From a virus, in the IMG/VR virus record IMGVR_UViG_3300002231_003432, positions 1 to 23,729 of that record: 23,729 nt of DNA; one strand, given 5' to 3'. Position numbers and translations under genes: made by a program. Shown here one piece after another: positions 2-22,996 of this stretch (within the stretch, counting starts at the first letter, position 1; every line of letters begins with the position of its first letter). Below the pieces are notes generated by a model. The model was given only the letters and a program-made list of their open reading frames with translations. It ran no database searches and had not been told where the DNA came from.

Positions 2-559
2 ATGGCAACACTTGTTAACACTGTAAGAGAACATCTTAAGGAAGGTCATACAACACTAGTAGTAGTTCCAGGAATTCAACTAGTAGAACAAACATATACC
101 GATTTTTTATCTTATGGCATAGACAAAGAGATAATATCAAAATGGAGTGGAAATAATAAATACAAAAACACTCCAATAATTATAGCATCAAGCTCTATTT
201 TACAAAGTAAAAAAACCGACAAAACAACATATGAAAATACAGACTTATTATTATTTGATGAATGTTTAAAAAAGGGACAAAAACTAAGAACTGTTAACGG
301 GTTAAGAAATATAGAAGATATACAAATAGGGGATTTAGTTTTATCCTATAATGATAAGACAAATGTTAATGAATATAAAAAGGTAAACAAAACATATAAA
401 AACATGATAAAAAGTAAATCTTACAAACACTTTTTGAAAATAACATTAGAAAGTGGGGATAAAATAGAGGTAACACCAAACCATAAAGTTTTTACTAGGA
501 ACAGGGGATATGTAAGAGCAGACGAATTAAAAGAGGATGATGATATTAAAATACTTTAG
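2..559 (+). CDS. uvsW: UvsW-type DNA helicase, N-terminal part (5' truncated) fused to N-terminal half of a split intein
   Basis: The first 87 visible residues match the first RecA-like domain of a superfamily 2 helicase: a LVVVPGIQLVEQ strand (motif Ia region) and LLLFDE, the start of motif II. T4 UvsW unwinds branched recombination and replication intermediates and R-loops. At position 263 the reading enters an intein: Cys1 followed by about 98 residues with a block A-like start, a GDLVLSYND strand and a block B TPNH motif (TxxH). It ends at TAG 557-559, and further in-frame stops follow, so the intein really stops here. The rest of the helicase begins at 1482 and rejoins as DE|CH, restoring a DECH box. 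The true start and the Walker A motif lie upstream of the window; the apparent first Met is internal. Without trans-splicing this product would lack most of the helicase. Confidence 0.9.
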   Translation: MATLVNTVREHLKEGHTTLVVVPGIQLVEQTYTDFLSYGIDKEIISKWSGNNKYKNTPIIIASSSILQSKKTDKTTYENTDLLLFDECLKKGQKLRTVNGLRNIEDIQIGDLVLSYNDKTNVNEYKKVNKTYKNMIKSKSYKHFLKITLESGDKIEVTPNHKVFTRNRGYVRADELKEDDDIKIL

Positions 560-574
560 GTATTGTTCTAGTAA

Positions 575-591
575 ATTCAATCGAATTGAAT
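575..591 (+). promoter_or_regulatory. Inverted repeat upstream of the GIY-YIG endonuclease gene
   Basis: ATTCAAT (575-581), a 3-base CGA loop and ATTGAAT (585-591) form a perfect 7-bp inverted repeat in the only non-coding gap of the first fractured gene. It ends 10 bases before the endonuclease ATG at 602, where no clear Shine-Dalgarno is seen. It could be an RNA hairpin controlling endonuclease translation or a protein binding site. AT-rich palindromes also arise by chance. Confidence 0.35.
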
Positions 592-601
592 AAGTATTTA
601 T

Positions 602-1384
602 ATGAAAAGAAAATACTACATATATGTATATTTAGACACTAGAAAGGAAGGGAGTTTTGATTATAAAAACTATAAATTTGTTTTTGAACCATTTTATGTT
701 GGCAAAGGTTTTGGTAATAGAATGTATTCACATTTAAAGTTATTAGACGAATCAAATAAATTTAAAAATTCTATTATCAAAAAAATTTATAATAACGATA
801 AAGAACCAATAATTATAAAATTGTTTGATGGTTTAAATGAAAACGAAGCTTTAAGATTAGAGAGTGATATTATAAAATGTATAGGAAGACGAGATATGGG
901 GAATGGGCCTTTAACTAATTTAACAGATGGTGGGGAAGGTATATCTGGTTTTATTTTTACTGAAGAACAAAAGAGGCGTATGGGTAGATTAAAAAAGACT
1001 CTTTATTTAGGAGAAGGAAATCCATTCTATGGTAAACACCACACAAGTAAAACAAAAGAGAAAATTAGTAATGCACATAAAGGGAAAAAATTAACAAAAG
1101 AACATGTTAAAAAAATTATAAAACATTTGAATAATGGTTGTGGAGAAAAGAATAATATGTTTGGAAGAGTTGGAAAAAACAACCCAAAAAGAAAAACATA
1201 TAAAATAATCAATCCAAACGGAAAAGAATATGTTATATATGGCACAATATCACACGATATAAAAATTTTTTGTGATAAACATAATATATCTAAACGATCT
1301 TTATATAGGACACTTCAAGACTATAACTATAATATAACTAAAGGCAAAACAAAGGGTTGGAAACTTAGATATGTCCAAGATTAA
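602..1384 (+). CDS. GIY-YIG homing endonuclease with NUMOD3-type DNA-binding repeats
   Basis: This 260-residue protein starts with a GIY-YIG nuclease domain: YYIYVYLD at 5-12, FYVGKG at 31-36, conserved Arg40, a metal-binding Glu near 87 in LRLESDII, and a TNLTDGGEG segment near 105-113. Residues 139-163 (GNPFYGKHH then SKTKEKIS) are a NUMOD3 motif, with a degenerate second copy around 183-196. The C-terminus (200-255) looks like a helix-turn-helix DNA-binding module. Such SegA/I-TevI-like enzymes cut intein- or intron-free alleles to spread their element. The gene stands between the two halves of the uvsW intein. Its stop overlaps the next start by 14 bases (1371-1384). No strong ribosome binding site precedes the ATG, and an inverted repeat lies just upstream, so expression may be restrained. 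No in-frame link to either intein half exists. Confidence 0.88.
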   Translation: MKRKYYIYVYLDTRKEGSFDYKNYKFVFEPFYVGKGFGNRMYSHLKLLDESNKFKNSIIKKIYNNDKEPIIIKLFDGLNENEALRLESDIIKCIGRRDMGNGPLTNLTDGGEGISGFIFTEEQKRRMGRLKKTLYLGEGNPFYGKHHTSKTKEKISNAHKGKKLTKEHVKKIIKHLNNGCGEKNNMFGRVGKNNPKRKTYKIINPNGKEYVIYGTISHDIKIFCDKHNISKRSLYRTLQDYNYNITKGKTKGWKLRYVQD

Positions 1385-2263
1385 AAAAATAGAATACATA
1401 AATAGAAACAATGAAGATGTTTATAATATTTCTGTAGAGAGCAATCATAATTATTATGCTAATAACATTTTAGTTAGTAATTGCCATAAACTTAGAAAGG
1501 GAAATAAGATTAATAAAATTGTTTCTAATATAAAAACCAAACATAAATTTTCCTTCACTGGTACAATGCCAGAGAACAAGATTGATGAGTGGAACATCAT
1601 AGGTCAGTTCGGACCAATCCTAATGAGGAAAACCTCAAAAGAATTACAGAACGATGATTTTGTGAGTGATGCACTTGTACAAGTTCTTAGAATCAAATAC
1701 AAGAAACCTTTGGTCTATAAATATCAATCAACATTTCTAGACCCAACGGCAAGGTATGATGAAGAATGTGAGTTCATTTACAATCACCCCTATCGAAATA
1801 AGGTCATAGCAAAAGCTTAGCTCATAAGGTTAGCAAAAACATGCTTGTCTTAGTAGATAGGATTGAGCATGGTGAAACGTTGACAGCGGAAATAAAGAAA
1901 CATAGTAAGAAAAAGAAAGTGTATTTCATTCGCGGAAGTGTAGAAGTAGATGATAGGGAAAAGATTCGTAGAATCATGGAAACCAACGACAATGTCGTTT
2001 GTGTTGCCATAACATCTATTTTCAGTACTGGCATTAACATAAAGAATCTACATTACATCTTATTTGCAAATGCTGGCAAAGCCAAAATTAAGATAATCCA
2101 GTCAATCGGACGTGGATTGAGATTACATGAGAACAAAGACATGCTAATCATATTTGACATTAGCGATAGATTAGAGTATTCTAATAAACATCTATCTAAG
2201 AGGTTGTCTTTGTACAACAAGGAAAAGATTAAATATGCCATCGAAGAAATTATCGAAAAATGA
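1371..2263 (+). CDS. uvsW: C-terminal intein half fused to the C-terminal part of UvsW helicase (one frame change near 1812)
   Basis: Residues 1-37 are a C-intein: a DVYNISVE strand (block F) and NNILVSN (block G) before Cys+1. The helicase then resumes as CHKLRKGNK, followed by motif III SFTGTMP. The frame stops at TAG 1818-1820, but the protein clearly continues one frame over (LAHKVSKNMLVLVDRIEHG) with FSTGINIKN (motif V) and QSIGRGLR (motif VI), ending at 2263. One extra A in the run at 1811-1814 would restore IAKSLAHKV, so a one-base deletion in the sequence is the simplest reading; a real frameshift mutation or recoding is possible. The ATG at 1371 lies inside the endonuclease gene (14-base overlap) with GGAAA upstream, suggesting translational coupling. 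The 3' end overlaps gene 55. Confidence 0.88.
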
Positions 2264-3810: not shown

Positions 3811-3938
3811 TGAAAGAGAAATGTGTTAAGTGTGCTAAGACAACATGCAGGCTGCATCCTAAGTATCAGGCTAAGAGACAGCCAAGATGTGATTGCAAAG
3901 TGTGTTGGGAAATATGGGAGAAGAAGAAAAATGAATAA
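3810..3938 (+). CDS. Small Cys-rich protein, possible zinc-binding (42 aa)
   Basis: The ATG overlaps the stop of gene 47 (TAATG) and the frame stays open for 42 residues. The protein is basic and has six cysteines: a CVKC pair (5, 8), Cys13, and a CDCKVC cluster (27, 29, 32), with His16. Such spacing suggests a zinc-binding knuckle. The gene overlaps the next start by 8 bases (3931-3938), fitting a translated position in the operon. I do not recognise a family. It may bind nucleic acid or a protein partner; that is inference only. Confidence 0.6.
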   Translation: MKEKCVKCAKTTCRLHPKYQAKRQPRCDCKVCWEIWEKKKNE

Positions 3939-4775
3939 TAAAATAGGATTAGGTCTTATTACATGTAACGCCCAAGATCGATTAGAACAGAGCCTTCCTT
4001 GGTTCCAGAAGTAGATGAGATGGTCATCATTAACGATGGTACTCCATATGAGAATTCTGTGTATGGAGATAAGGAAGTTATTCAACATCCTAAGAACAAG
4101 GGTGTAGGAATTAGTAAAAATGATGCTATGCGCTATCTTGTACAGCATGACTGTTCACATATCTTCATAATGGAAGATGACGTTCTTATTCAGGATGAGA
4201 ATGTATTTGAGCAATACATTAAGACCGCAGAGGTAAGTGGTATCTGGCATATGAATTATGCGCTTCAGGGTCCAGCTAATAGAACACAGAAGGGCAATGC
4301 TCCTATGTTCATTCAGGAGAGAGCTAACTTCGACCAGGATTCACCACCAAACCCAAGACAGATCGTTGAATACGAAAACGGATTGGACGTAGCACTGTAT
4401 CCAAACTGTGTAGGTGCATTTTCATACTTCTTGAAGAGTGTCATCAAGCATGTTGGATATCATGACGAGCGTTTTCATAACGCATGGGAACATGTAGAGC
4501 ATACATACAGGATTATTAAGGCTGGTCTTCATCCTCCTTTCTGGTGGTTCGCTGATATCGCTGATAGTTGGAATTATCTTGACGATATCGAAGGATGTAT
4601 TGAGAATAGTGCCATCGCAAAGACAGAAGAATGGAATCAAAACCTACAGGAAGGAATGGCTTGGTACTCTCATAAACATGGTTGGATACCACAGCAGACT
4701 CCAGACACTCCACCACAAAACGTTATGGCTATTCTTGAAAACATTGAAAAGACATATGCAAGGAAAGTTTTGTGA
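3931..4775 (+). CDS. Glycosyltransferase, GT2-like (one frame change near 3998)
   Basis: The protein begins IGLGLITCNAQDRLEQSL, a GT-A nucleotide-sugar binding start, and continues with MVIINDGT, a GVGISKNDAMRYL segment and MEDDV (a DXD-type metal/nucleotide-sugar motif). Further on are aromatic-rich acceptor-side segments (FHNAWEHVEHTYRIIKAG, PPFWWFADIADSW). It would transfer a sugar from a nucleotide-sugar donor; the acceptor is unknown. The frame starting at 3931 stops at 4012-4014, while the rest runs in the next frame from about 3996. One missing C in the TTCCA at about 3992-3996 would restore LPWFPEVDEM, so a one-base deletion is likely. The ATG at 3931 overlaps the preceding small gene, with GAGAAGAAG upstream. 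This is the first gene of the glycan island. Confidence 0.75.
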
Positions 4776-10320: not shown

Positions 10321-11302
10321 ATGAACTATCTAGTAACAGGAATAACAGGATTCGCAGGACCACACTTAACAAACCTTCTTCACAAAGAAGGACACAAGGT
10401 TTTTGGTCTAGTTCGTGGAAGTAATGGAATGGAAACGGATATCTTGGACGTTGTCCCTGCCGAAACCTTCAATGATATCACTTTTGTATATGGAAACTTA
10501 ACAAGCTATAACGCACTTCAGCGTGTAGTTCAAAAAGAATAGGTTTGATGGTGTGTTCCACCTTGCAGCACAGTCTCATCCACCAACTTCTTTTGAAGAC
10601 CCACTGGACACACTTAACAACAATGTTATGGGCACAGCTAATCTGATTCAGTGCATAACAGAGATGCAGCCAGAATGCAAACTAATGTTTTGCTCAACAT
10701 CAGAAGTCTACGGCAACACTGGCAAGGATGGTAGAAAGATAACAATCGATAATAAAATTCTTCCGTCAAATCCTTACGGTGTTTCAAAAGCATCTATTGA
10801 TCTCTATGTTCAAGAGCGTGTAACAAATGGCAAACTCAACGCATATATAACTAGAGCGTTCTCACACACTGGTCCAAGAAGAGGTAAGAAGTTTTCTATC
10901 TCTTCCGATGCATACCAGATAGCTCGCATGGTTAATGGTCAGCAGGACAAGGAACTTCTAATTGGAAATCTAGATTCAGTTAGAGTGGTGGTTGATGTTA
11001 GGGATATTGTTAACGCATATTATCTATTGATGATCAACAATAAGTCCACTGGTGGCATCTTTAACGTATGTGGAGATGAGCCACACAAGATGAGATATTT
11101 CACCGATCTATTGGTTGAGGTTAGTGGTCTGGAAGGCGTTGAATATAAGATTCATGATCCATTCTGGAGACCAATTGACATTCACTATCAGGATGGTGAT
11201 CGTAAAGAATTAGTAGAACTCACAGGCTGGAAGCCAGAGTATGATATCAGAACAACCATGGTCGATCTTCTCGACTATTGGGTAAAGAAGACGAGCGAAT
11301 AA
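10321..11302 (+). CDS. NAD(P)-dependent GDP-mannose dehydratase/reductase-like enzyme (one frame change near 10540)
   Basis: This is an extended short-chain dehydrogenase: TGITGFAG (residues 7-14) is the NAD(P)-binding TGxxGxxG, followed after the frame change by FHLAAQSHPPTSFEDP, an STSEVYG segment and YGVSK (catalytic YxxxK). RAFSHTGPRR matches the GDP-mannose 4,6-dehydratase / GDP-4-keto-6-deoxymannose reductase (GMD/RMD) group. Such enzymes make GDP-deoxyhexoses (fucose, rhamnose). Frame 1 stops at 10540-10542 and the protein continues one base later. Dropping one A from the five-A run near 10533-10537 gives VVQKNRFDGVFHLAAQ, so a homopolymer insertion is likely. AAAGGAGA precedes the ATG. 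Which of the two steps it catalyses is not settled; the length (about 325 residues) is nearer RMD. Confidence 0.82.
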
Positions 11303-14174: not shown

Positions 14175-14880
14175 AGTTCTAGTACTAGGAAAAGGATACC
14201 TAGGAAAGGAATTTGAACGTCATGGATTTGAAACTTGGGGAAAGAGTAAACTAACTTTTCAATATCCCCTTCCAGCCTTTCCTAATAATGCACTTGAAGA
14301 GATTAGAAATTATGATGTAGTTGTTAATTGCATTGGCAAATCTAACACTCGTTGGTGTGAGAGGGAAGATAACCTCCACGAGGCCATGTTTGTTAATAGT
14401 GAGTTGCCAGGATTGATTAGTGAGTATTGCAATAGGAATGGTATTCGGTATGTCCATATATCCACAGGTTGTTTATATGGAGATACTGTAGAACCAGCAA
14501 CTGAATCTACTCATATAGCTGCACATTGTAGATATACATTGACTAAATGGATGGGCGAAATTCTATGTAATCCAAAAGACCTCATTGTGAGACCGAGACT
14601 ATACTTCAGTGATGTAGAAGATAAAAACAATCTTCTGTGTAAGCTGCAAAAGTTTAGGTCATTCACTGGAGACAAAGTGGATAGTGTATCTTCAACCTCA
14701 ACAATAGTTGGAGCAGTGAAAGAATTGATTCAAGCTGACCAATCTGGTATATTCAATGTAGCACAAGAAGGTTCTGCCTCTATAGCCAAAATAGCACTTT
14801 GGTGTGGTCTCCCAGTAAAGGAAATCATAACGGCTAAACAGCTACAAGAAAGGAAAATCTACATCTTGTCAACAACATAA
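14164..14880 (+). CDS. RmlD-like NAD(P)-dependent sugar reductase/epimerase
   Basis: From ATG 14164 the 238-residue protein starts KVLVLGKGYLGKEF, a GxGxxG nucleotide-binding loop. Then come VVVNCIGKSNTRWCE (the NxxG strand with the RmlD-like 'vD.CE' position), YVHISTGCLYG (the S/T of the catalytic triad) and YTLTKWMGE, where Tyr and Lys form YxxxK. This is the pattern of dTDP-4-dehydrorhamnose reductases and related short-chain dehydrogenases. The C-terminal part is shorter than in RmlD (about 290). An upstream in-frame ATG at 14128 would extend it into the previous gene; the 14164 start puts the GxGxxG loop at the normal place. It probably makes a deoxysugar nucleotide for the island's transferases. 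Confidence 0.72.
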   Translation: MANKVLVLGKGYLGKEFERHGFETWGKSKLTFQYPLPAFPNNALEEIRNYDVVVNCIGKSNTRWCEREDNLHEAMFVNSELPGLISEYCNRNGIRYVHISTGCLYGDTVEPATESTHIAAHCRYTLTKWMGEILCNPKDLIVRPRLYFSDVEDKNNLLCKLQKFRSFTGDKVDSVSSTSTIVGAVKELIQADQSGIFNVAQEGSASIAKIALWCGLPVKEIITAKQLQERKIYILSTT

Positions 14881-15138: not shown

Positions 15139-16961
15139 AAAATGTAAACTTCAAAAGAATAGAGATAGAGAACTTTCTTAGTATAGGTGATGAGACAGTA
15201 GACGTTGATTTCAAAACTGGTCTTAATGTAATAACTGGTATCAATCTGGACAAAGAGGATTCTAAAAACGGTGTAGGTAAAACAACGATTGCTGATGCAT
15301 TGTACTTTTGTCTTTTTGGCACTACAATACGAGAACTCAAAAAAGAAGACATCATAAACAACATTAACCAAAAGAAGTGTAGGGTTAAGTTGACTTTTAA
15401 TGTGACAGATACCAAGGTAACTAACAACTATGTTCTTGAACGTTTCATAACACCTAACAAAGTATACCTGGAAGAGAATGGGATTGACAAGACAAAGTCC
15501 TCAATGCCCAAAACTACCGCTGAAGTGTGTAGAATAATAGGTGCATCACCAGAAGTATTCAAGAATGCTGTCATCATGACAGTTAACGGAACTGTTCCAT
15601 TTATGGCACAGAAGAAAGTTGAAAAGAGAAAGTTCTGTGAAGGTCTGTTCAACCTTGGTGTATTCCAAGATATGTTGCTTGAGGGAAGAAAGAGATACAA
15701 CGAAACCAAGAGAGACATAGAAATAGAGAAGACCAAGAAAGAGGAAGTCGAAAAGACGTTGGCTATATATCAGGAACAAGACAAAAGTAAGACTGAGTAT
15801 AGAATAAAACGCACGAATAAACTACTTGGAAGAAAAGAAGATAATATAAACGAACTCAAAGAGCTTGAGGACACGATTGTTAAAATTAATATAGGCGATA
15901 TAAAAGAGTTTGAGTCTAACATATCATTACTGGAAGAAAAGAAAGAATCACTTCAAAATAACATAAGAAAATGTATACGATCAATAGCCACCAAGGAAGA
16001 GCAGATCAAATCAAAGAGAGAAGATATAGAGAATCTCAAAGAGTTTGGTGATATGTGTGATAAGTGTAAAAGACCGTTCACAGAAAACGATAAAAACAGT
16101 CGCAACGAAAAGATAACAAACATCAAGGAAGAAATTAATGGCATAAGTATTGATGTTGTTAATTTGACTAATAAACAAAGCAAATTTGAAGACCAAAAAG
16201 AAAAGTGTCTTAAGGCTATCGAAAGACAGAAAAACGGCATCAGAAAGATAAATGTTTCTGTAGAAAAGAATAAAGAGGTATCTGCTAGAATAGATCAACT
16301 TAACGGTTGGAACAACCAGATTAAGATTGATATAGATGCGTTAGAAACGGATAAGAATGAGTTTAAGGAATTTCTTAAAGATACCAATTCCAGATTAGAA
16401 TCACTTAGAACCACTATTACCGAATTGAATAAACGTCTAGAAATACTAGATTCTGTAAAGTATGTAGTATCAGAAGAAGGAGTTAAGTCGTTCATAGTTG
16501 TGAAGTTATTAAAGATACTAAATGGTAAACTTGCATACTATCTTAATAGGTTAGATGCACCATGCAAATTCAAATTCAATGAATATTTCAATGAGCGCAT
16601 TATCAATGATAAAGGAAAGGAATGCTCATACAATAACTTCTCAAGTGGAGAGAAGAAACGTATTGATTTGGCAATACTATTCACCTTCATGGACATAATA
16701 AGGTTGCAGGGAAATACTGCCCTTAATATAGCCTTCTATGATGAAATACTTGACACAAGCTTAGATGATAAAGGAATAGAAGCATTCTTAGAAATAGTTA
16801 ATGAGAGAGTTGAAAAATACAATGAGGCATGTTATATTATCAGTCATAAAAGTGCTGCTATAAAAGCTGCTACGAGCGATGTTGTGTTTTTGAAAAAGAA
16901 GAATGGGTTGACTACACTGGGAAACCTATCTGAAGAGGAAGAGTTCTTGAGAGGAATATAA
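15135..16961 (+). CDS. 46: gp46 recombination ATPase subunit (Rad50/SbcC family)
   Basis: This 608-residue SMC-type ATPase partners gp47 in DNA end resection. The N-terminal lobe begins FKRIEIENFLSIGDE and has Walker A NGVGKTT at about 45-51. A long charged coiled-coil (about 180-450) is broken by a zinc hook CDKCKRPF (Cys308, Cys311) that dimerises Rad50 proteins. The C-terminal lobe has the ABC signature NNFSSGEKKRIDLAI (near 500) and Walker B AFYDEILD (near 535), followed by an ISHK D-loop/switch region. It is slightly longer than T4 gp46 (560). The start overlaps the preceding stop (ATGA) with GGAAG upstream. It is cut off from gene 47 by the glycan island, and the T4 clamp and clamp-loader genes do not follow it. 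Confidence 0.93.
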   Translation: MKNVNFKRIEIENFLSIGDETVDVDFKTGLNVITGINLDKEDSKNGVGKTTIADALYFCLFGTTIRELKKEDIINNINQKKCRVKLTFNVTDTKVTNNYVLERFITPNKVYLEENGIDKTKSSMPKTTAEVCRIIGASPEVFKNAVIMTVNGTVPFMAQKKVEKRKFCEGLFNLGVFQDMLLEGRKRYNETKRDIEIEKTKKEEVEKTLAIYQEQDKSKTEYRIKRTNKLLGRKEDNINELKELEDTIVKINIGDIKEFESNISLLEEKKESLQNNIRKCIRSIATKEEQIKSKREDIENLKEFGDMCDKCKRPFTENDKNSRNEKITNIKEEINGISIDVVNLTNKQSKFEDQKEKCLKAIERQKNGIRKINVSVEKNKEVSARIDQLNGWNNQIKIDIDALETDKNEFKEFLKDTNSRLESLRTTITELNKRLEILDSVKYVVSEEGVKSFIVVKLLKILNGKLAYYLNRLDAPCKFKFNEYFNERIINDKGKECSYNNFSSGEKKRIDLAILFTFMDIIRLQGNTALNIAFYDEILDTSLDDKGIEAFLEIVNERVEKYNEACYIISHKSAAIKAATSDVVFLKKKNGLTTLGNLSEEEEFLRGI

Positions 16962-18292
16962 TGAGTCCTAAATTTAAGATGCCTATAAACAATGCTCCTA
17001 TGGGGCAACCACAGCAGCCACGTCCACAAGCTCCACAAAAGCCTGGAGTGATGTACAAACCAACTAATGTTGGTGTTCCTTTTGCACCTATGGGTATGCC
17101 AATTGGTGTCCCGCAAGCAGCCATGGTTGGACAACAAAGAGTTGGAGGTGGTGGAACACCTCTTCCAATACCAGGAGCAAACCTATCTCGTGCAGTAAAT
17201 TACTATGCCGACTATGGTGGTTGTGGTTTCTGGAGAATGATCTGGCCAGAACTTCTGGTTAATGGTTATCAGAAGGCAATCATAAATGGCCTTACAACTA
17301 TGGTTTTAGATGAACGTTTCTATGGTGGTTTAAAAGCAGTTAGACTTCAAAGACAAGCCACTCCAGAGCAGCTTAAGTTTGTTAACTTCTTGAGAAGAGC
17401 ATCAGAGAAATTTGATTACAAAATAATATACGAAATAGACGATATTATCTTCAAAGATGATATTCCTGATTTCAATCGTTGCAAGGTTGCATTCGAAGAT
17501 GATAAAATTCTTCAGAGTGCATTGTCTATCATGCAACAAAGTGATGAGATTTCTGTTACGTGTGAGTACATGAAAGATTACTACAAACATAAAACTGGAA
17601 ATAATAACATTACTGTTATCCCTAACTACGCACCAAAGATGTGGGCAGATGGTTATTATGACAAATCTCTGATATCCAGAAATTATGATAAGTTTAAGCA
17701 GCGTCCAAGGATTGGATATTGTGGATCAGGAACACCATATTGATGTCACAAATAGAACTGGACAGCAAGATGACTTTACACATATTGTAGATCAGATTAT
17801 CAAAACACGCAGGGACTTCCAATGGGTTATGATGGGATGTTACCCACTTCCTCTTAAGCCGTTTGTTGATAATGGTGAGATTGAGTTGATATCTTGGTCT
17901 ACAATTCTTGAATATCCAAAGGCAATGCATAATCTTAATCTCAATGCAACGATAGCACCATTGGTAGATTGTCATTTTCAACAGAGCCAAGAGTAACATC
18001 AAGTTTCTTGAGGCTGCTTATCAGGGACTTCCTGGTGCCTATCAGGATATGGTGACATACAAAGACGCACCAGTAAGGTTTAAGACTGGTAGATGAGATG
18101 GTTGACCAGCTTAAGAATCTTCTAAAGGATAAGTCTTACTACATGAAGATATCAAAACAGAGTCGTAAGTACGCTGATACAATGTGGCTTGATGATCATC
18201 TAGATGAGTATGTAGAATTGTACATGAGTGATTATGGTGATGCCACTAGAAAGGCTATCCTTAATCGTAACCCAGAACAAAAAGTAGGTTAA
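16961..18292 (+). CDS. GT4-like glycosyltransferase with Pro/Gly-rich N-terminus (three frame changes)
   Basis: The first 70 residues are low-complexity, rich in Pro, Gln, Gly and Met (PMGQPQQPRPQ, GVPFAPMGMPIG), probably disordered. Then comes a GT-B-type protein: YEIDDIIFKDD, VTCEYMKDYY, ITVIPNYAP, RPRIGYCGSGT (start of the donor domain) and NRAKSNIKFLEAAYQGLPG, which matches the GT4 donor-binding segment (K...EAxxxGxP). The frame changes at about 17731 (one C too many), 17976 (one T too many) and 18091 (one A too many). All three are apparent insertions, and the conserved sequence runs through all of them. Together they give a protein of about 440 residues. Either the sequence has errors here or the gene is decaying. 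It sits between genes 46 and 43. ATG 16961 overlaps the gene 46 stop, with GAGGAA upstream. Confidence 0.75.
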
Positions 18293-18663: not shown

Positions 18664-18947
18664 TGGCAAATTACGCAAAAGCCTATGTTGATATAACAGA
18701 AAACGGATATGTTGTAACTGGGATGTACAAGAATAATGGAACCAAGAAACAATATGTCTTTAGAAAAGCTAGTGAAATGAGAAAATGGCTCAAGGATAAT
18801 CTGGCACCTACAGGTGAAGTAGAAAGATTCTCCGATGCACTTGACAATGAATCTGAAAGTGGTAGAATAGATGCCGTTAGTAACAAAATAAACATGGTAG
18901 GATATTTACAATCAGTATTTGGCACAAAGGATACGTCTAGTGTATAG
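18663..18947 (+). CDS. Hypothetical protein (94 aa), paralogue of the previous gene
   Basis: The start overlaps the preceding stop (TAATG) and has GAGGAAG upstream. The first 45 residues share the NGY ... YVFRKASEMRKWLKDNL pattern with the upstream protein, so the two probably arose by duplication. The remainder has an acidic linker and a hydrophobic end (INMVGYLQSVFGTK). It overlaps the likely GTG start of gene 43 by 8 bases, so its translation may be coupled to the polymerase. No family is recognised. Confidence 0.65.
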   Translation: MANYAKAYVDITENGYVVTGMYKNNGTKKQYVFRKASEMRKWLKDNLAPTGEVERFSDALDNESESGRIDAVSNKINMVGYLQSVFGTKDTSSV

Positions 18948-21060
18948 AAGCATTCATTACAACATACCAAAGAAATATGTCAGATTGGGAACATGGGACG
19001 AAAACGGAAAACGTGTCTCCGTTAATGTTCCTTTCAGCCCATACATATATGTAGAGAACGAATCCAATGCGGATGCCGTTTCTATTTTCAACACAAATTT
19101 GGTAAAGAAATCATTCAAGAATTCTTGGGATCGTGATAAGTACATCAAGAATTCTGGCCTCAAGAGAATTTTCTATAACATACCAACAGAGCAGCAATTC
19201 TTGATCGATACATTTGGATCAAAGAACAGCGAAGCAGAGTTCTCTGAAAATCCTCTTAAGATAAACTTCCTTGATATTGAAACATATTCTCCAGGAGAAT
19301 TCCCTGATCCAAAGATTGCACCAGACCCAATCAACATCATAACGATATTTGATTCGCTAACAAAGAAGTTTTACACATGGGGAACTAGCGGAAAAAATGG
19401 TGGTGATTATACTGGACCAGCTAATGTTGTTTACACACAGTGTAAATCTGAAAGCGACATGCTGATAAAGTTTTTGAACTTCTGGAAGTCTGATTATCCT
19501 GATATCGTTTCAGGATGGAATTCAGAAGGATTTGATATTCCTTATCTAATTAATAGGATCAAGAGCATCCTTGGTGAAGATGCAGCCAATGTACTTTCTC
19601 CCGTCAAGCAATTATATTGCAGAGAAAACGTAGTTACCAAATATGGTAAGCGCGAAGATAGATGGTACATCAAAGGATTGTGTCATTTGGATTACATGCA
19701 CGTTTACAAAACGTTTACAAAGGATAAGCGTGAACGCTATACTTTGGATTTTATTGGAGAGACTGAATTAAAGATTAACAAGAAATACGTTCCAGCATCA
19801 GACCTACCAGCATTCGCAGATAATGACTGGCAAGGATTCTGTGAGTACAACATTCAGGATGTTAACATTCTTGTGAGGCTGGAGGAGTCTCTACACTTCC
19901 TTGATATCGTCCGTAAGCTAGCATATATGGGCTACACGAACTTTGAACAAGCACTTGGTACAATTGCCATCGTTACAGGAGCAATGGCTTTAAAGGCTCT
20001 TGAGAAGGGAATGATTATACCTACATTCCCAAACAAAGCGTCTAGCAACTATGAAGGTGGATTTGTGAGAGACCCACAACGCGGTCTAAAGGATAGCATC
20101 GTAAGTTTTGATGCTAACAGTCTATATCCTAATACCATTATCAGTACGAACATTTCTCCTGAAACAAAGGTTGGTAAGATCATTAACAAGTCAGATACGA
20201 ATGTAGAAATACGTTTGATCAACGGAAAGATTTACGACCTCACACATGAAAAGTTCTTTGAGTTTGTTGAGAAGGAAAACATCGCAATAACCAAAGCCAA
20301 GATCATGTACTCTCAGAAGACGAAGGGATTCTGCCCTGAACTTCTAGATGGCATCTATAGCGAACGTTTGTTAAACCAGAAGGAACTCAAGAGACATAGA
20401 AGAGATATCAGAAAGTGTAAAGATGGTTCTGATAAGTACAAAGAACACGAAAAGTCTATCGTAGAATTGGATGTCATGCAGTACACATTGAAGATTCTTA
20501 TGAATCGCTTGTACGGTGCATTTGGAAACATACACAGTCCATTCTATGACATTGATGCAGCAGCTAGTGTTACATTAACTGGTCAAGCTTGTATTAAGGA
20601 AGCAGCAGAAATAACAGATCGCTTCATGAAGAGTGAGTATGATATTGACGAAGATTGCACAATTTATGGAGATACAGATAGTTTTGTTGGTGATACGTTA
20701 ATTCGAACAAATCATGGAATAATAAAAGCAGAAGATTTGTATAATATGTATAATATCAAACCAAATACAGATAAACATGGACATGAACTAAAAGATATTA
20801 CAGATTTAGAATGTTTAACGTATAATGATTCCAATAAAAGTGTTGAATTTGGAAAGGTTAAGCGATTAATTAGACATAGAACATCCAAGAAAAAATATAA
20901 AATCAAGGTAAACGGAAAAGAAATAATCATGACAGAGGATCATGGATGTATGGTATTACGAAAGGATAAATTGATTCGTCTATCTCCAAAAGATATTAAA
21001 AATACTGATAAAATGATAAGTATTTATGGTGAGACTGGTACAAAGCTGGTATCCCAATAG
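18940..21060 (+). CDS. 43: DNA polymerase gp43, N-terminal 580 residues, fused to N-terminal half of a second split intein
   Basis: This is a family B replicative polymerase. Proofreading motifs counted from GTG 18940 are DIE (112-114), NSEGFD (194-199) and YNIQD (303-307). Polymerase motif A is DANSLYP (391-397), motif B KILMNRLYG (from 518), and motif C YGDTD at 576-580. Directly after, at 20680, the intein begins (Ser1, SFVGDTLIRTNHG block A; MTEDHG block B with TxxH) and ends at TAG 21058-21060 after 126 residues. The catalytic motif C is therefore split, and the second half starts at 22159. The start is uncertain: GTG 18940 has AAAGGA at a good distance; TTG 18919 is in frame but has none. 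Trans-splicing is needed for a complete enzyme. Confidence 0.92.
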   Translation: MYRSIHYNIPKKYVRLGTWDENGKRVSVNVPFSPYIYVENESNADAVSIFNTNLVKKSFKNSWDRDKYIKNSGLKRIFYNIPTEQQFLIDTFGSKNSEAEFSENPLKINFLDIETYSPGEFPDPKIAPDPINIITIFDSLTKKFYTWGTSGKNGGDYTGPANVVYTQCKSESDMLIKFLNFWKSDYPDIVSGWNSEGFDIPYLINRIKSILGEDAANVLSPVKQLYCRENVVTKYGKREDRWYIKGLCHLDYMHVYKTFTKDKRERYTLDFIGETELKINKKYVPASDLPAFADNDWQGFCEYNIQDVNILVRLEESLHFLDIVRKLAYMGYTNFEQALGTIAIVTGAMALKALEKGMIIPTFPNKASSNYEGGFVRDPQRGLKDSIVSFDANSLYPNTIISTNISPETKVGKIINKSDTNVEIRLINGKIYDLTHEKFFEFVEKENIAITKAKIMYSQKTKGFCPELLDGIYSERLLNQKELKRHRRDIRKCKDGSDKYKEHEKSIVELDVMQYTLKILMNRLYGAFGNIHSPFYDIDAAASVTLTGQACIKEAAEITDRFMKSEYDIDEDCTIYGDTDSFVGDTLIRTNHGIIKAEDLYNMYNIKPNTDKHGHELKDITDLECLTYNDSNKSVEFGKVKRLIRHRTSKKKYKIKVNGKEIIMTEDHGCMVLRKDKLIRLSPKDIKNTDKMISIYGETGTKLVSQ

Positions 21061-22158
21061 GAGATGTTATGAAACAATATATAGAATGTAAGATTTGTGG
21101 AAAAAAACTAAAGCGGATAACACATTCACATGTTAAGACACATAATATAACAATTAAACAATACCAAGATAAATTTGGGTATGACCCATCTATATTAACT
21201 TGTGAATCATTATTAAATAAATTTTCTGTTACTGAGAAGTCTATGATTAATAAATATGGTGAAAAGGATGGTAAACATAGGTGGAATGAATATAAAGAAA
21301 AACAGAGAGTAAGTAATACATATGAATATAAAAAACATAAACATGGCTGGACAATGGAACAGTTTAATTCTTATAATTCATCAAGAGCGGTAACAAAAGA
21401 AAATTGTATTAAAAGACATGGAAAGGTCAAAGGACTTTCCGTATATAATGAATATATTAGAAAACAACGATATAGTGGATGTACAATAGAGTACTTTATT
21501 GATAAATATGGCGAACCTGATGGGATTCGTGAATATAATAGGGTTTGTAGAGAAAAGGGACATACCATTGATAATTATATACGAAAATATGGAATACTAA
21601 GTGTTAAAAAATATAATGAATATAAGAATAACCAAAGACCATTTTATTCAAAGATATCGCAAGAAATGTTTGATGAAATATACGATAGTATAGAATACAC
21701 GAAATGTTATTACGCTAAATTAAATAAAGAATATGGGATATATCTACCACATTCTAAACAATACACGTTTATAGATTTTTATGTCTTAGATTGTAATAAG
21801 GCCATAGAATTTTATGGAGATTATTGGCATTGCAATCCTAATATATATGATGAAAAATATGTACATACAGTTTACAATAAACCTGCAAAAGAGGTTTGGG
21901 ATAGCGATAATAATAGAATTTCTGAATTATATAACCATTATGGGATAGATACATTAGTAATATGGCAACAGGATTATATTGATAATAAAAACGATACAAT
22001 AAATAAATGCTTGGAGTTTTTAAATGATTAGGTATAGCATAGATGAAATAGAATCCATTGAATGTATTGGTGAGTTTGAAGATGAATATGTATATGATAT
22101 AGAAATGGATGATACTACAGATCATACATTTTTTGCTAATGATATATTAATACACAAC
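20680..22158 (+). mobile_element. Split intein with embedded Vsr-like (EDxHD) homing endonuclease gene, inserted in gene 43 motif C
   Basis: The N-intein (20680-21057), an endonuclease gene (21069-22031) and the C-intein (22024-22158, 45 residues ending LIHN) interrupt the polymerase. Removing it joins YGDTD to SVYITID, the expected family B motif C. Ser1 and Ser+1 are the nucleophiles; block G (HN) is canonical. The endonuclease Shine-Dalgarno TAGGAG includes the N-intein stop TAG. The endonuclease stop overlaps the C-intein ATG by 8 bases. YGDTD|S is also a known insertion point of contiguous polymerase inteins in archaea. Confidence 0.92.
21069..22031 (+). CDS. Vsr-like (EDxHD) homing endonuclease with Zn finger and tandem DNA-binding repeats
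   Basis: Residues 7-25 are a CxxC...HxxxH zinc finger (CKICGKKLKRITHSHVKTH) like the MucR-type modules on phage homing enzymes. About residues 62-190 contain four related repeats: KYGEKDGKHRWNEYKEKQR, RHGKVKGLSVYNEYIRKQR, KYGEPDGIREYNRVCREKG and KYGILSVKKYNEYKNNQR, probably successive DNA-binding units. The C-terminal domain has FIDFYV (Asp236), AIEFYGDYWHCNP with Glu247, Asp251 and His254, and VIWQQDY, the Vsr-related EDxHD signature. Such enzymes cut alleles lacking the insertion. TAGGAG ends 5 bases before the ATG. The gene is free-standing between the polymerase halves. A comparable arrangement is described for fractured genes in marine metagenomes; this repeat-rich middle is notable. Confidence 0.88.
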   Translation: MKQYIECKICGKKLKRITHSHVKTHNITIKQYQDKFGYDPSILTCESLLNKFSVTEKSMINKYGEKDGKHRWNEYKEKQRVSNTYEYKKHKHGWTMEQFNSYNSSRAVTKENCIKRHGKVKGLSVYNEYIRKQRYSGCTIEYFIDKYGEPDGIREYNRVCREKGHTIDNYIRKYGILSVKKYNEYKNNQRPFYSKISQEMFDEIYDSIEYTKCYYAKLNKEYGIYLPHSKQYTFIDFYVLDCNKAIEFYGDYWHCNPNIYDEKYVHTVYNKPAKEVWDSDNNRISELYNHYGIDTLVIWQQDYIDNKNDTINKCLEFLND

Positions 22159-22996
22159 AGTGTATATATAACTATTGATCCTATATTGCAGCTATCTAAT
22201 ATCCCACTCTTGAATGATAAGGGAGAAATCTACAAAAGAAGTTTACGAGATAGCTGAAAAACTAGAAGATAGACTCAATAGTGAGATAACTAACTGGGCA
22301 GTTAAAAGTTGTAATGTCAAAGACCCTAGATTCAAGTTCAAAAGAGAAACAATTTGTAACTCTGGACTATTTCTTGAAAAGAAGAGATACATACTTCATG
22401 TCTTAGATAAGGATGGGTTGCCACCAAAAGAAGATAAGGAAATCAAATACACTGGTGTTGAAGTAGTAAGCATCAAGATTCCTAAAAAGGTCAAGCCTCT
22501 TATCAAAAACATATCCAAGGTAATGCTTAAGACAAGGGATAAGAAAAAGACGGATGAAGCTTACAAAGAAGCATATGAAGAATACATCAAAATGGATGTA
22601 GAAGATATTGCAACTCCAATAGGTGTCAATAAGTATGAAGAGTATGAAGCAAAATCAAATGGATTTGTAGCTGGTAAGAAAACACCAGGACATACAAAGG
22701 CTGCAATCATGTACAATCATTTGCTAAGAACTCTAGACTTAACGAGTAAGTATGAACTTATAGAATCTGGTGATAGCATCAAGACGTTTTATACTGAGAA
22801 GAACAAGTATAATATCAAAGGTATGGCATTCAAGGATATGTATCCTAAAGAGTTTGGCATTAATATCGATAAGATAGCGATGTTCAACAAGAATATCACA
22901 CCTGCTGTAGAACGACTCTATGAAGTCGTTGGATGGACACTAAAGAATCCTACAAAAGAAACAGAATGTGATCTGTTAGAACTTTTGGGAGCTTGA
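22024..22996 (+). CDS. 43: C-terminal intein half fused to the C-terminal part of DNA polymerase gp43 (one frame change near 22229)
   Basis: Residues 1-45 are the C-intein (block F EYVYDIEMDD, block G NDILIHN), followed by Ser+1 and the polymerase sequence SVYITIDPILQLSN. The frame stops at 22255-22257, but the conserved sequence continues one frame over as STKEVYEIAEKLEDRL, then EKKRYILHV (the KKRY motif that contacts template-primer) and the thumb, ending LLELLGA at 22996. One A too many near 22227-22229 (GAAATC) explains it: GESTKEVYE is then continuous. With the N-terminal part, the spliced enzyme would have about 858 residues, near T4 gp43 (898). GGAG precedes ATG 22024, which overlaps the endonuclease stop. 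Confidence 0.9.

What the first reader, a model, noticed from the sequence alone, without database searches (positions are those of the whole stretch)
18940..22996. Fractured gene 43: polymerase catalytic motif YGDTD|S divided by a second split intein carrying a Vsr-like endonuclease
Seen: motif C YGDTD followed by Ser1 of an intein half with TEDH block B, a separate endonuclease gene with zinc finger and EDxHD-type core, and a 45-residue C-intein ending HN before Ser+1 (SVYITID). The active site of the replicative polymerase is made only when both parts meet. Known: the same polymerase position hosts contiguous inteins in archaea. Splitting the active site itself makes this locus a good natural split enzyme.
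Basis: partly seen in the sequence, partly recalled or inferred. Interest (0 to 1): 0.85.

Follow-up and report, generated by a model that had tools for sequence, protein, structure and literature searches.

The report
Phage polymerase gene split by intein
A phage's DNA polymerase gene is cut in two inside its active-site motif by a split self-splicing protein element with a DNA-cutting gene between the halves: a real arrangement, but already known from several phages, whose relatives here show that such splits come and go often.

Summary
Relatives are intact there and the window holds several similar breaks, so an assembly indel is likely. The arrangement is not new. Aeromonas (Aes508/Aes123), Tenacibaculum PTm1 and Campylobacter CP21 phages have the same split intein at the same bond with a related endonuclease, and the Aes123 intein has been crystallised and trans-spliced. 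Nanoarchaeum and phage MIJ3 polymerases are also intein-split in this region. New here is the comparison. Within one small polymerase clade, alleles are empty (78% identical), contiguous mini-intein (74%) and split-with-endonuclease (76%, and the window). Across 64 related inteins, contiguous and split-with-endonuclease forms interchange about 18 times, at least 11 forced by well-supported branches, and the endonuclease occurs in no contiguous form. The best reading is a homing element of known kind, in a family where fracture and contiguity switch repeatedly. The direction of switching is only hinted at.

The parts
18940..20679 (+). PolB (T4 gp43-like) N-extein: exonuclease and polymerase up to motif C YGDTD
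   Evidence: start set by alignment with L003, L004, L253
20665..20679 (+). motif C YGDTD, last five N-extein residues
20680..21060 (+). N-intein (126 aa, Ser1, TEDH 85-88, His66) and stop
   Evidence: homologues in 84 loci
21069..22031 (+). free-standing Vsr-like (EDxHD-type) endonuclease, zinc-finger N-terminus; AGGAG ahead of its ATG
22024..22158 (+). C-intein (45 aa, ends HN); its ATG overlaps the endonuclease stop
22159..22257 (+). start of the C-extein (SVYITIDPIL...), runs into a stop after a frame break at about 22,232-22,245
   Evidence: uninterrupted in L003, L004, L253, L255 and L256
22214..22996 (+). rest of the PolB C-extein in another frame (as listed from ATG 22214; homology from about 22,232)
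   Evidence: phrog_262 1.7e-40; 71-76% identical to L003/L004

Best explanation
This is a fractured gene. A phage PolB gene of the T4 gp43 family is occupied at the YGDTD|S site by a split intein, and between the intein halves sits an independently translated Vsr-like/EDxHD-type homing endonuclease. Shown: the anatomy, the exact junctions, the intein-free allele, the same layout in close (L004, L005) and distant phages, and the fold of a contiguous relative. Inferred: the polymerase fragments are translated separately. Their intein halves (N-half net +8, C-half net -13) find each other by charge, fold together and trans-splice through Ser1, the last Asn of the C-intein and Ser+1 to give an unscarred polymerase. 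The endonuclease cuts intein-free alleles in co-infection, and repair copies the whole block. Because the block sits in an invariant catalytic motif, only exact loss is tolerated. Comparison adds that the endonuclease cassette is gained or lost repeatedly, switching the intein between split and contiguous forms.
For: Intein models above curated cut-offs on both halves. Same bond, same order and a related endonuclease in Aes508, PTm1 and CP21. Empty L253, contiguous L003, split L004 and the window lie in one five-row starred clade. The AF2 model of the L003 intein (pLDDT 91.7) has 9HTH, the Aes123 PolB1 split intein, as its best PDB match (TM 0.88, E 5e-14); that intein trans-splices in vitro (PMC11923092). 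53 of 95 loci (duplicates included) are split with the endonuclease, and 0 of 25 contiguous ones have it. Insert GC is 27-28% against 38% and 34.5% for the exteins. Charges. Switching: 18 changes among 64 inteins, at least 11 forced.
Against: The C-extein is frame-broken as assembled, so this copy could not make a full polymerase. The glycosyltransferase gene at 16961-18283 has three further breaks against four relatives while similarity persists across them, and the record also holds an ambiguous base that reads X in UvsX, so assembly indels are likelier than decay. No splicing or cleavage was measured. The endonuclease's link to Vsr is weak (profile E 0.11; Foldseek probability 0.72 with E 0.48), and I-Bth0305I was not matched.
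Confidence: 0.88

Rival explanations
1. The polymerase copy is decayed: the frame break is real and the fragments do not make an active enzyme; another polymerase serves the phage.
For: The C-part is split between two frames at about 22,232-22,245.
Against: 71-76% identity to intact relatives continues past the break, several neighbouring genes show the same kind of break, and L004 and L005 have the same layout without it. One polymerase match in the 28-kb record.
Confidence: 0.08
2. The fragments work as a non-covalent two-part polymerase and the intein halves are inert relics.
For: Phage 25 gp43A/43B, split without an intein, co-purify and are active (PMC2988022).
Against: All splicing residues are kept in both halves; the split runs through the motif-C hairpin; residual intein sequence would sit in the active site.
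Confidence: 0.04
3. Contiguous inteins of this family are ancestral and the endonuclease gene invaded them independently many times (fracture only, no re-fusion). This concerns the family history, not the identity of the locus.
For: Split inteins are generally thought to come from contiguous ones (PMC12707363). Endonuclease and intein distances agree only in part (Mantel r 0.31; same nearest neighbour in 12 of 37).
Against: Mantel r exceeds all 5000 permutations. Contiguous forms keep charge separation like the split forms (+7.0 and -9.5 against +6.9 and -10.5), and their C-halves are more acidic than those of contiguous bacterial inteins (-9.5 against -6.0). The L259 linker matches 19 of 21 bases of the endonuclease 3' end of its relative L005 (z 2.6, one of 22 tests, suggestive only). 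L148/L150 are split, lack the endonuclease and keep a short stretch resembling its end.
Confidence: 0.35

Closest known systems
Aes123/Aes508 PolB1 split intein of Aeromonas phage gp43 (GenBank JN377894; PDB 9HTH)
   Same: Same extein bond (D-1, S+1), same split position, same order N-half, Vsr endonuclease, C-half; related endonuclease (34.5% over 84%)
   Different: 30% identical N-half; Aes508 gp43 is split once more upstream and has an intron; the Aes123 intein is cysteine-less, the window's halves have 2 and 1 non-catalytic Cys
Campylobacter phage CP21 PolB1 and Tenacibaculum phage PTm1 split polymerases
   Same: Same site, split intein and Vsr-like endonuclease; CP21 tested biochemically (PMC12707363)
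   Different: 40% and 38% identical N-halves; other parts of the gene also fragmented
Fractured genes of Dassa et al. 2009 (cited in PMC13014065 and PMC6892783; paper not held)
   Same: Enzyme gene cut by a split intein with a free-standing endonuclease gene between
   Different: Different host gene from the examples I recall (gp41 helicase, NrdJ, IMPDH; from memory)
Nanoarchaeum equitans split PolB (pol-c position)
   Same: Family B polymerase divided by a split intein at motif C (PMC549080)
   Different: Cellular gene; the pol-c site is written YGD|TDS in that paper, two residues before the window's; no endonuclease between (the last point from memory)
Pseudomonas phage MIJ3 split PolB
   Same: Split intein with an endonuclease gene inside PolB (PMC6892783)
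   Different: Endonuclease reported there as HNH; sequence not compared here

Membership tests
T4 gp43-type family B DNA polymerase | Exonuclease and polymerase domains with motifs A and C | tested here: met
T4 gp43-type family B DNA polymerase | Uninterrupted C-part in this copy (state of the copy, not of the family) | tested here: not met
   Frame break near 22,232-22,245; uninterrupted in five relatives
Split intein (class 1, Ser1/Asn/Ser+1) | Splicing blocks A, B, F, G with nucleophiles in two ORFs | tested here: met
Split intein (class 1, Ser1/Asn/Ser+1) | Hint horseshoe fold | tested here: inconclusive
   Shown for the contiguous relative L003; the window's pair itself was not folded
Split intein (class 1, Ser1/Asn/Ser+1) | Trans-splicing activity | not testable with these tools
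   Needs co-expression
Aes123 PolB1-type intein allele | Insertion at YGDTD|S between Asp-1 and Ser+1 of phage PolB | tested here: met
Fractured-gene arrangement | Free-standing endonuclease gene between intein halves | tested here: met
Fractured-gene arrangement | Intein-free alleles in relatives | tested here: met
   L253, L255, L256, L257 and 45 more rows
EDxHD/Vsr-like homing endonuclease | Vsr-like catalytic core | tested here: inconclusive
   Only Vsr structures lead the profile search, E 0.11; Foldseek 1vsr probability 0.72, E 0.48; conserved D236, E247, H254
EDxHD/Vsr-like homing endonuclease | Similarity to I-Bth0305I | tested here: inconclusive
   Its PDB chain was not matched; source phage record not held
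EDxHD/Vsr-like homing endonuclease | Cuts the intein-free site | not testable with these tools
   Needs an in vitro assay

The most novel reading that the evidence does not exclude
Gene fracture at this site is reversible. In phage PolB the split-with-endonuclease and contiguous mini-intein forms interconvert many times (at least 11 changes), including re-fusion after loss of the endonuclease, so that empty, contiguous and fractured alleles coexist within one clade as stages of a homing cycle.
Probability: 0.5. Interest if true: 0.65.

Novelty: new member of a known kind. Interest (0 to 1): 0.42.

Why it matters
On its own the locus is another member of the Aes123-type fractured polymerases and a possible new split-intein tool. 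Its wider value is the natural series around it. Polymerases 71-78% identical carry an empty site, a contiguous mini-intein or a fractured gene, and across the family the two intein states switch repeatedly. That makes an old question testable with matched natural alleles: how genes become split, and whether splits can heal.

Tried and rejected
Co-conversion: no rise in DNA identity near the insertion among occupied alleles. Endonuclease remnants in contiguous linkers: only L259 stands out among 22. Direction of change from charge separation: split and contiguous forms barely differ; the bacterial comparison is not corrected for relatedness. DNA-level relatives of the insert in isolated phages: only partial (26% or less of the query) matches to Lak and other phages. 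Rfam, tRNA: none in the window. Splits with gaps under about 100 bases may be frame errors in contiguous inteins, so they and the remnant-bearing rows were left out of the careful tree. The papers of Dassa 2009 and Taylor 2011 and record EF583821 are not held.

Full report
What is there. The window is bases 1-23729 of a 28,153-base virus record. From GTG 18940 a family B polymerase runs to motif C. It aligns with T4 gp43 structures over 562 residues (E 1.4e-54) and with phrog_262. After YGDTD the frame continues into a 126-residue N-intein (Ser1, TEDH at residues 85-88, His66) and stops at 21060. A 320-residue endonuclease follows (21069-22031). A 45-residue C-intein starts inside the endonuclease stop (22024) and ends HN at 22158, followed by SVYITIDPIL. 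Curated intein models pass their cut-offs on both sides. The halves carry opposite charge, N-half +8 and C-half -13, as expected for fragments that meet by charge (capture and collapse, PMC11923092).

The C-extein is not open to 22996. The ORF that holds the C-intein stops at 22257, and the rest of the polymerase lies in another frame from about 22,232. L003, L004, L253, L255 and L256 are uninterrupted there. The same comparison shows three breaks in the glycosyltransferase gene (16961-18283) and one near 14,850, with similarity continuing on both sides. UvsX just outside the window holds an ambiguous base. I therefore read the break as an assembly indel, but cannot prove it. Second, YGDTD and motif A both lie in the N-half, so what is divided is the motif-C hairpin between Asp and Ser.

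The empty site. L253 (polymerase 78% identical, same neighbours) reads CTIYGDTDSVYITIDPIL with no insert. So do L255, L256 and L257 in their own versions, and the more distant Vibrio phage D490. The insert is 27-28% GC against 38% and 34.5% in the exteins, which fits recent entry from lower-GC relatives; L003 and L004 have 30-32% GC polymerases.

Not new as a kind. A protein search of isolated phages with the N-intein finds it in annotated 'intein-containing split DNA polymerase' genes of Aeromonas and Tenacibaculum phages and in Campylobacter polymerases; the endonuclease search finds the partner at the same places. Annotated regions show the same order in Aes508 and PTm1 and, without intein annotation, in CP21. 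The Aes123 intein trans-splices (about 30% as isolated, ultra-fast in its active fraction) and is crystallised as 9HTH (PMC11923092, PMC13014065). CP21 has been tested (PMC12707363). MIJ3 was described in 2019 (PMC6892783), and the N. equitans split coincides with the pol-c position (PMC549080). An AF2 model of the contiguous L003 intein (pLDDT 91.7) has 9HTH as its best structural match (TM 0.88).

The endonuclease. It has an N-terminal CxxC...HxxxH finger, a long helical middle and a C-terminal core whose invariant residues include D236, E247, G250, H254, P257 and W299. Its profile's best solved structures are Vsr enzymes, weakly (E 0.11); the fold search agrees weakly. I call it Vsr-like/EDxHD-type. 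I-Bth0305I itself could not be compared.

How common, and in what forms. Of 95 loci (some duplicate contigs) with both halves at PolB motif C, 53 are split with the endonuclease, 25 are contiguous and none of those has it, and 17 are split without a profile-matched endonuclease. Four short-gap split loci (L094, L118, L144, L159) carry pieces of it; they are counted with the 53. In L148 and its copy L150 the endonuclease is gone but a short stretch like its end and the C-ORF start remain. In the polymerase tree the window lies in a five-row starred clade holding two empty, two split and one contiguous allele; 13 gains or losses of the intein are needed among 70 rows. In a careful tree of 64 inteins (contiguous or split with a full endonuclease only), 18 state changes are needed, 17-19 in bootstraps, and at least 11 are forced by starred branches. 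Sister pairs include L117/L121 and L132/L011.

Direction. The counts cannot tell gain from loss. Hints toward loss and re-fusion: endonuclease and intein distances are correlated beyond chance (Mantel r 0.31, 0 of 5000 permutations); contiguous forms keep split-like charge separation, with C-halves more acidic than those of contiguous bacterial inteins (not corrected for relatedness); and the L259 linker matches 19 of 21 bases of the endonuclease end in its relative L005 (one of 22 tests). None is decisive.

Mechanism. Likely: two precursors are made; the intein halves associate, fold and trans-splice, restoring YGDTDSVYITID. The endonuclease, translated on its own from the same region, cuts intein-free alleles in mixed infection so that repair spreads the block. 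Splicing and cleavage are inferred from relatives and were not measured. Verdict: real, a new member of a known kind, with a family history that deserves follow-up.

Noticed in passing
window 2-2263: A second fractured gene: UvsW-like helicase with a Cys1 split intein and a LEM-3-like GIY-YIG/NUMOD3 endonuclease between the halves. Its C-part is also frame-broken near 1820-1841. Two split inteins of different nucleophile type in one phage.
   Followed up: partly
L010 4500-6300: At the same PolB site, an apparently atypical split: an N-intein of only about 12 residues (SCAYSTLIDVIF), then a Vsr-like endonuclease, then a long C-part. Shorter than the 15 residues called record-short in PMC13014065; one contig only.
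   Followed up: partly
L123, L156, L163, L167, L168, L174 (and probably L087): Related inteins sit two codons earlier, YGD|S...HN|TDS, so two overlapping insertion sites are in use in phage PolB.
   Followed up: partly
L089 4222-6520 (Nitratidesulfovibrio phage SRB7757): The C-part ORF repeats a piece of the N-intein (block B) before the C-intein, as if the split had produced a partial duplication.
   Followed up: no
L094, L118, L144, L159: Split inteins with only a fragment of the endonuclease left between the halves: decaying stages.
   Followed up: partly
window 16961-18283, 14850, 10542-10553, 3823-4014: Several genes broken by frame shifts; for the first two, relatives show intact genes, which points to indel errors in the assembly.
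   Followed up: partly
L104, L111, L151, L157, L158: Split PolB inteins with an intervening ORF of 285-535 aa that the EDxHD profile does not match; possibly other endonuclease families.
   Followed up: no
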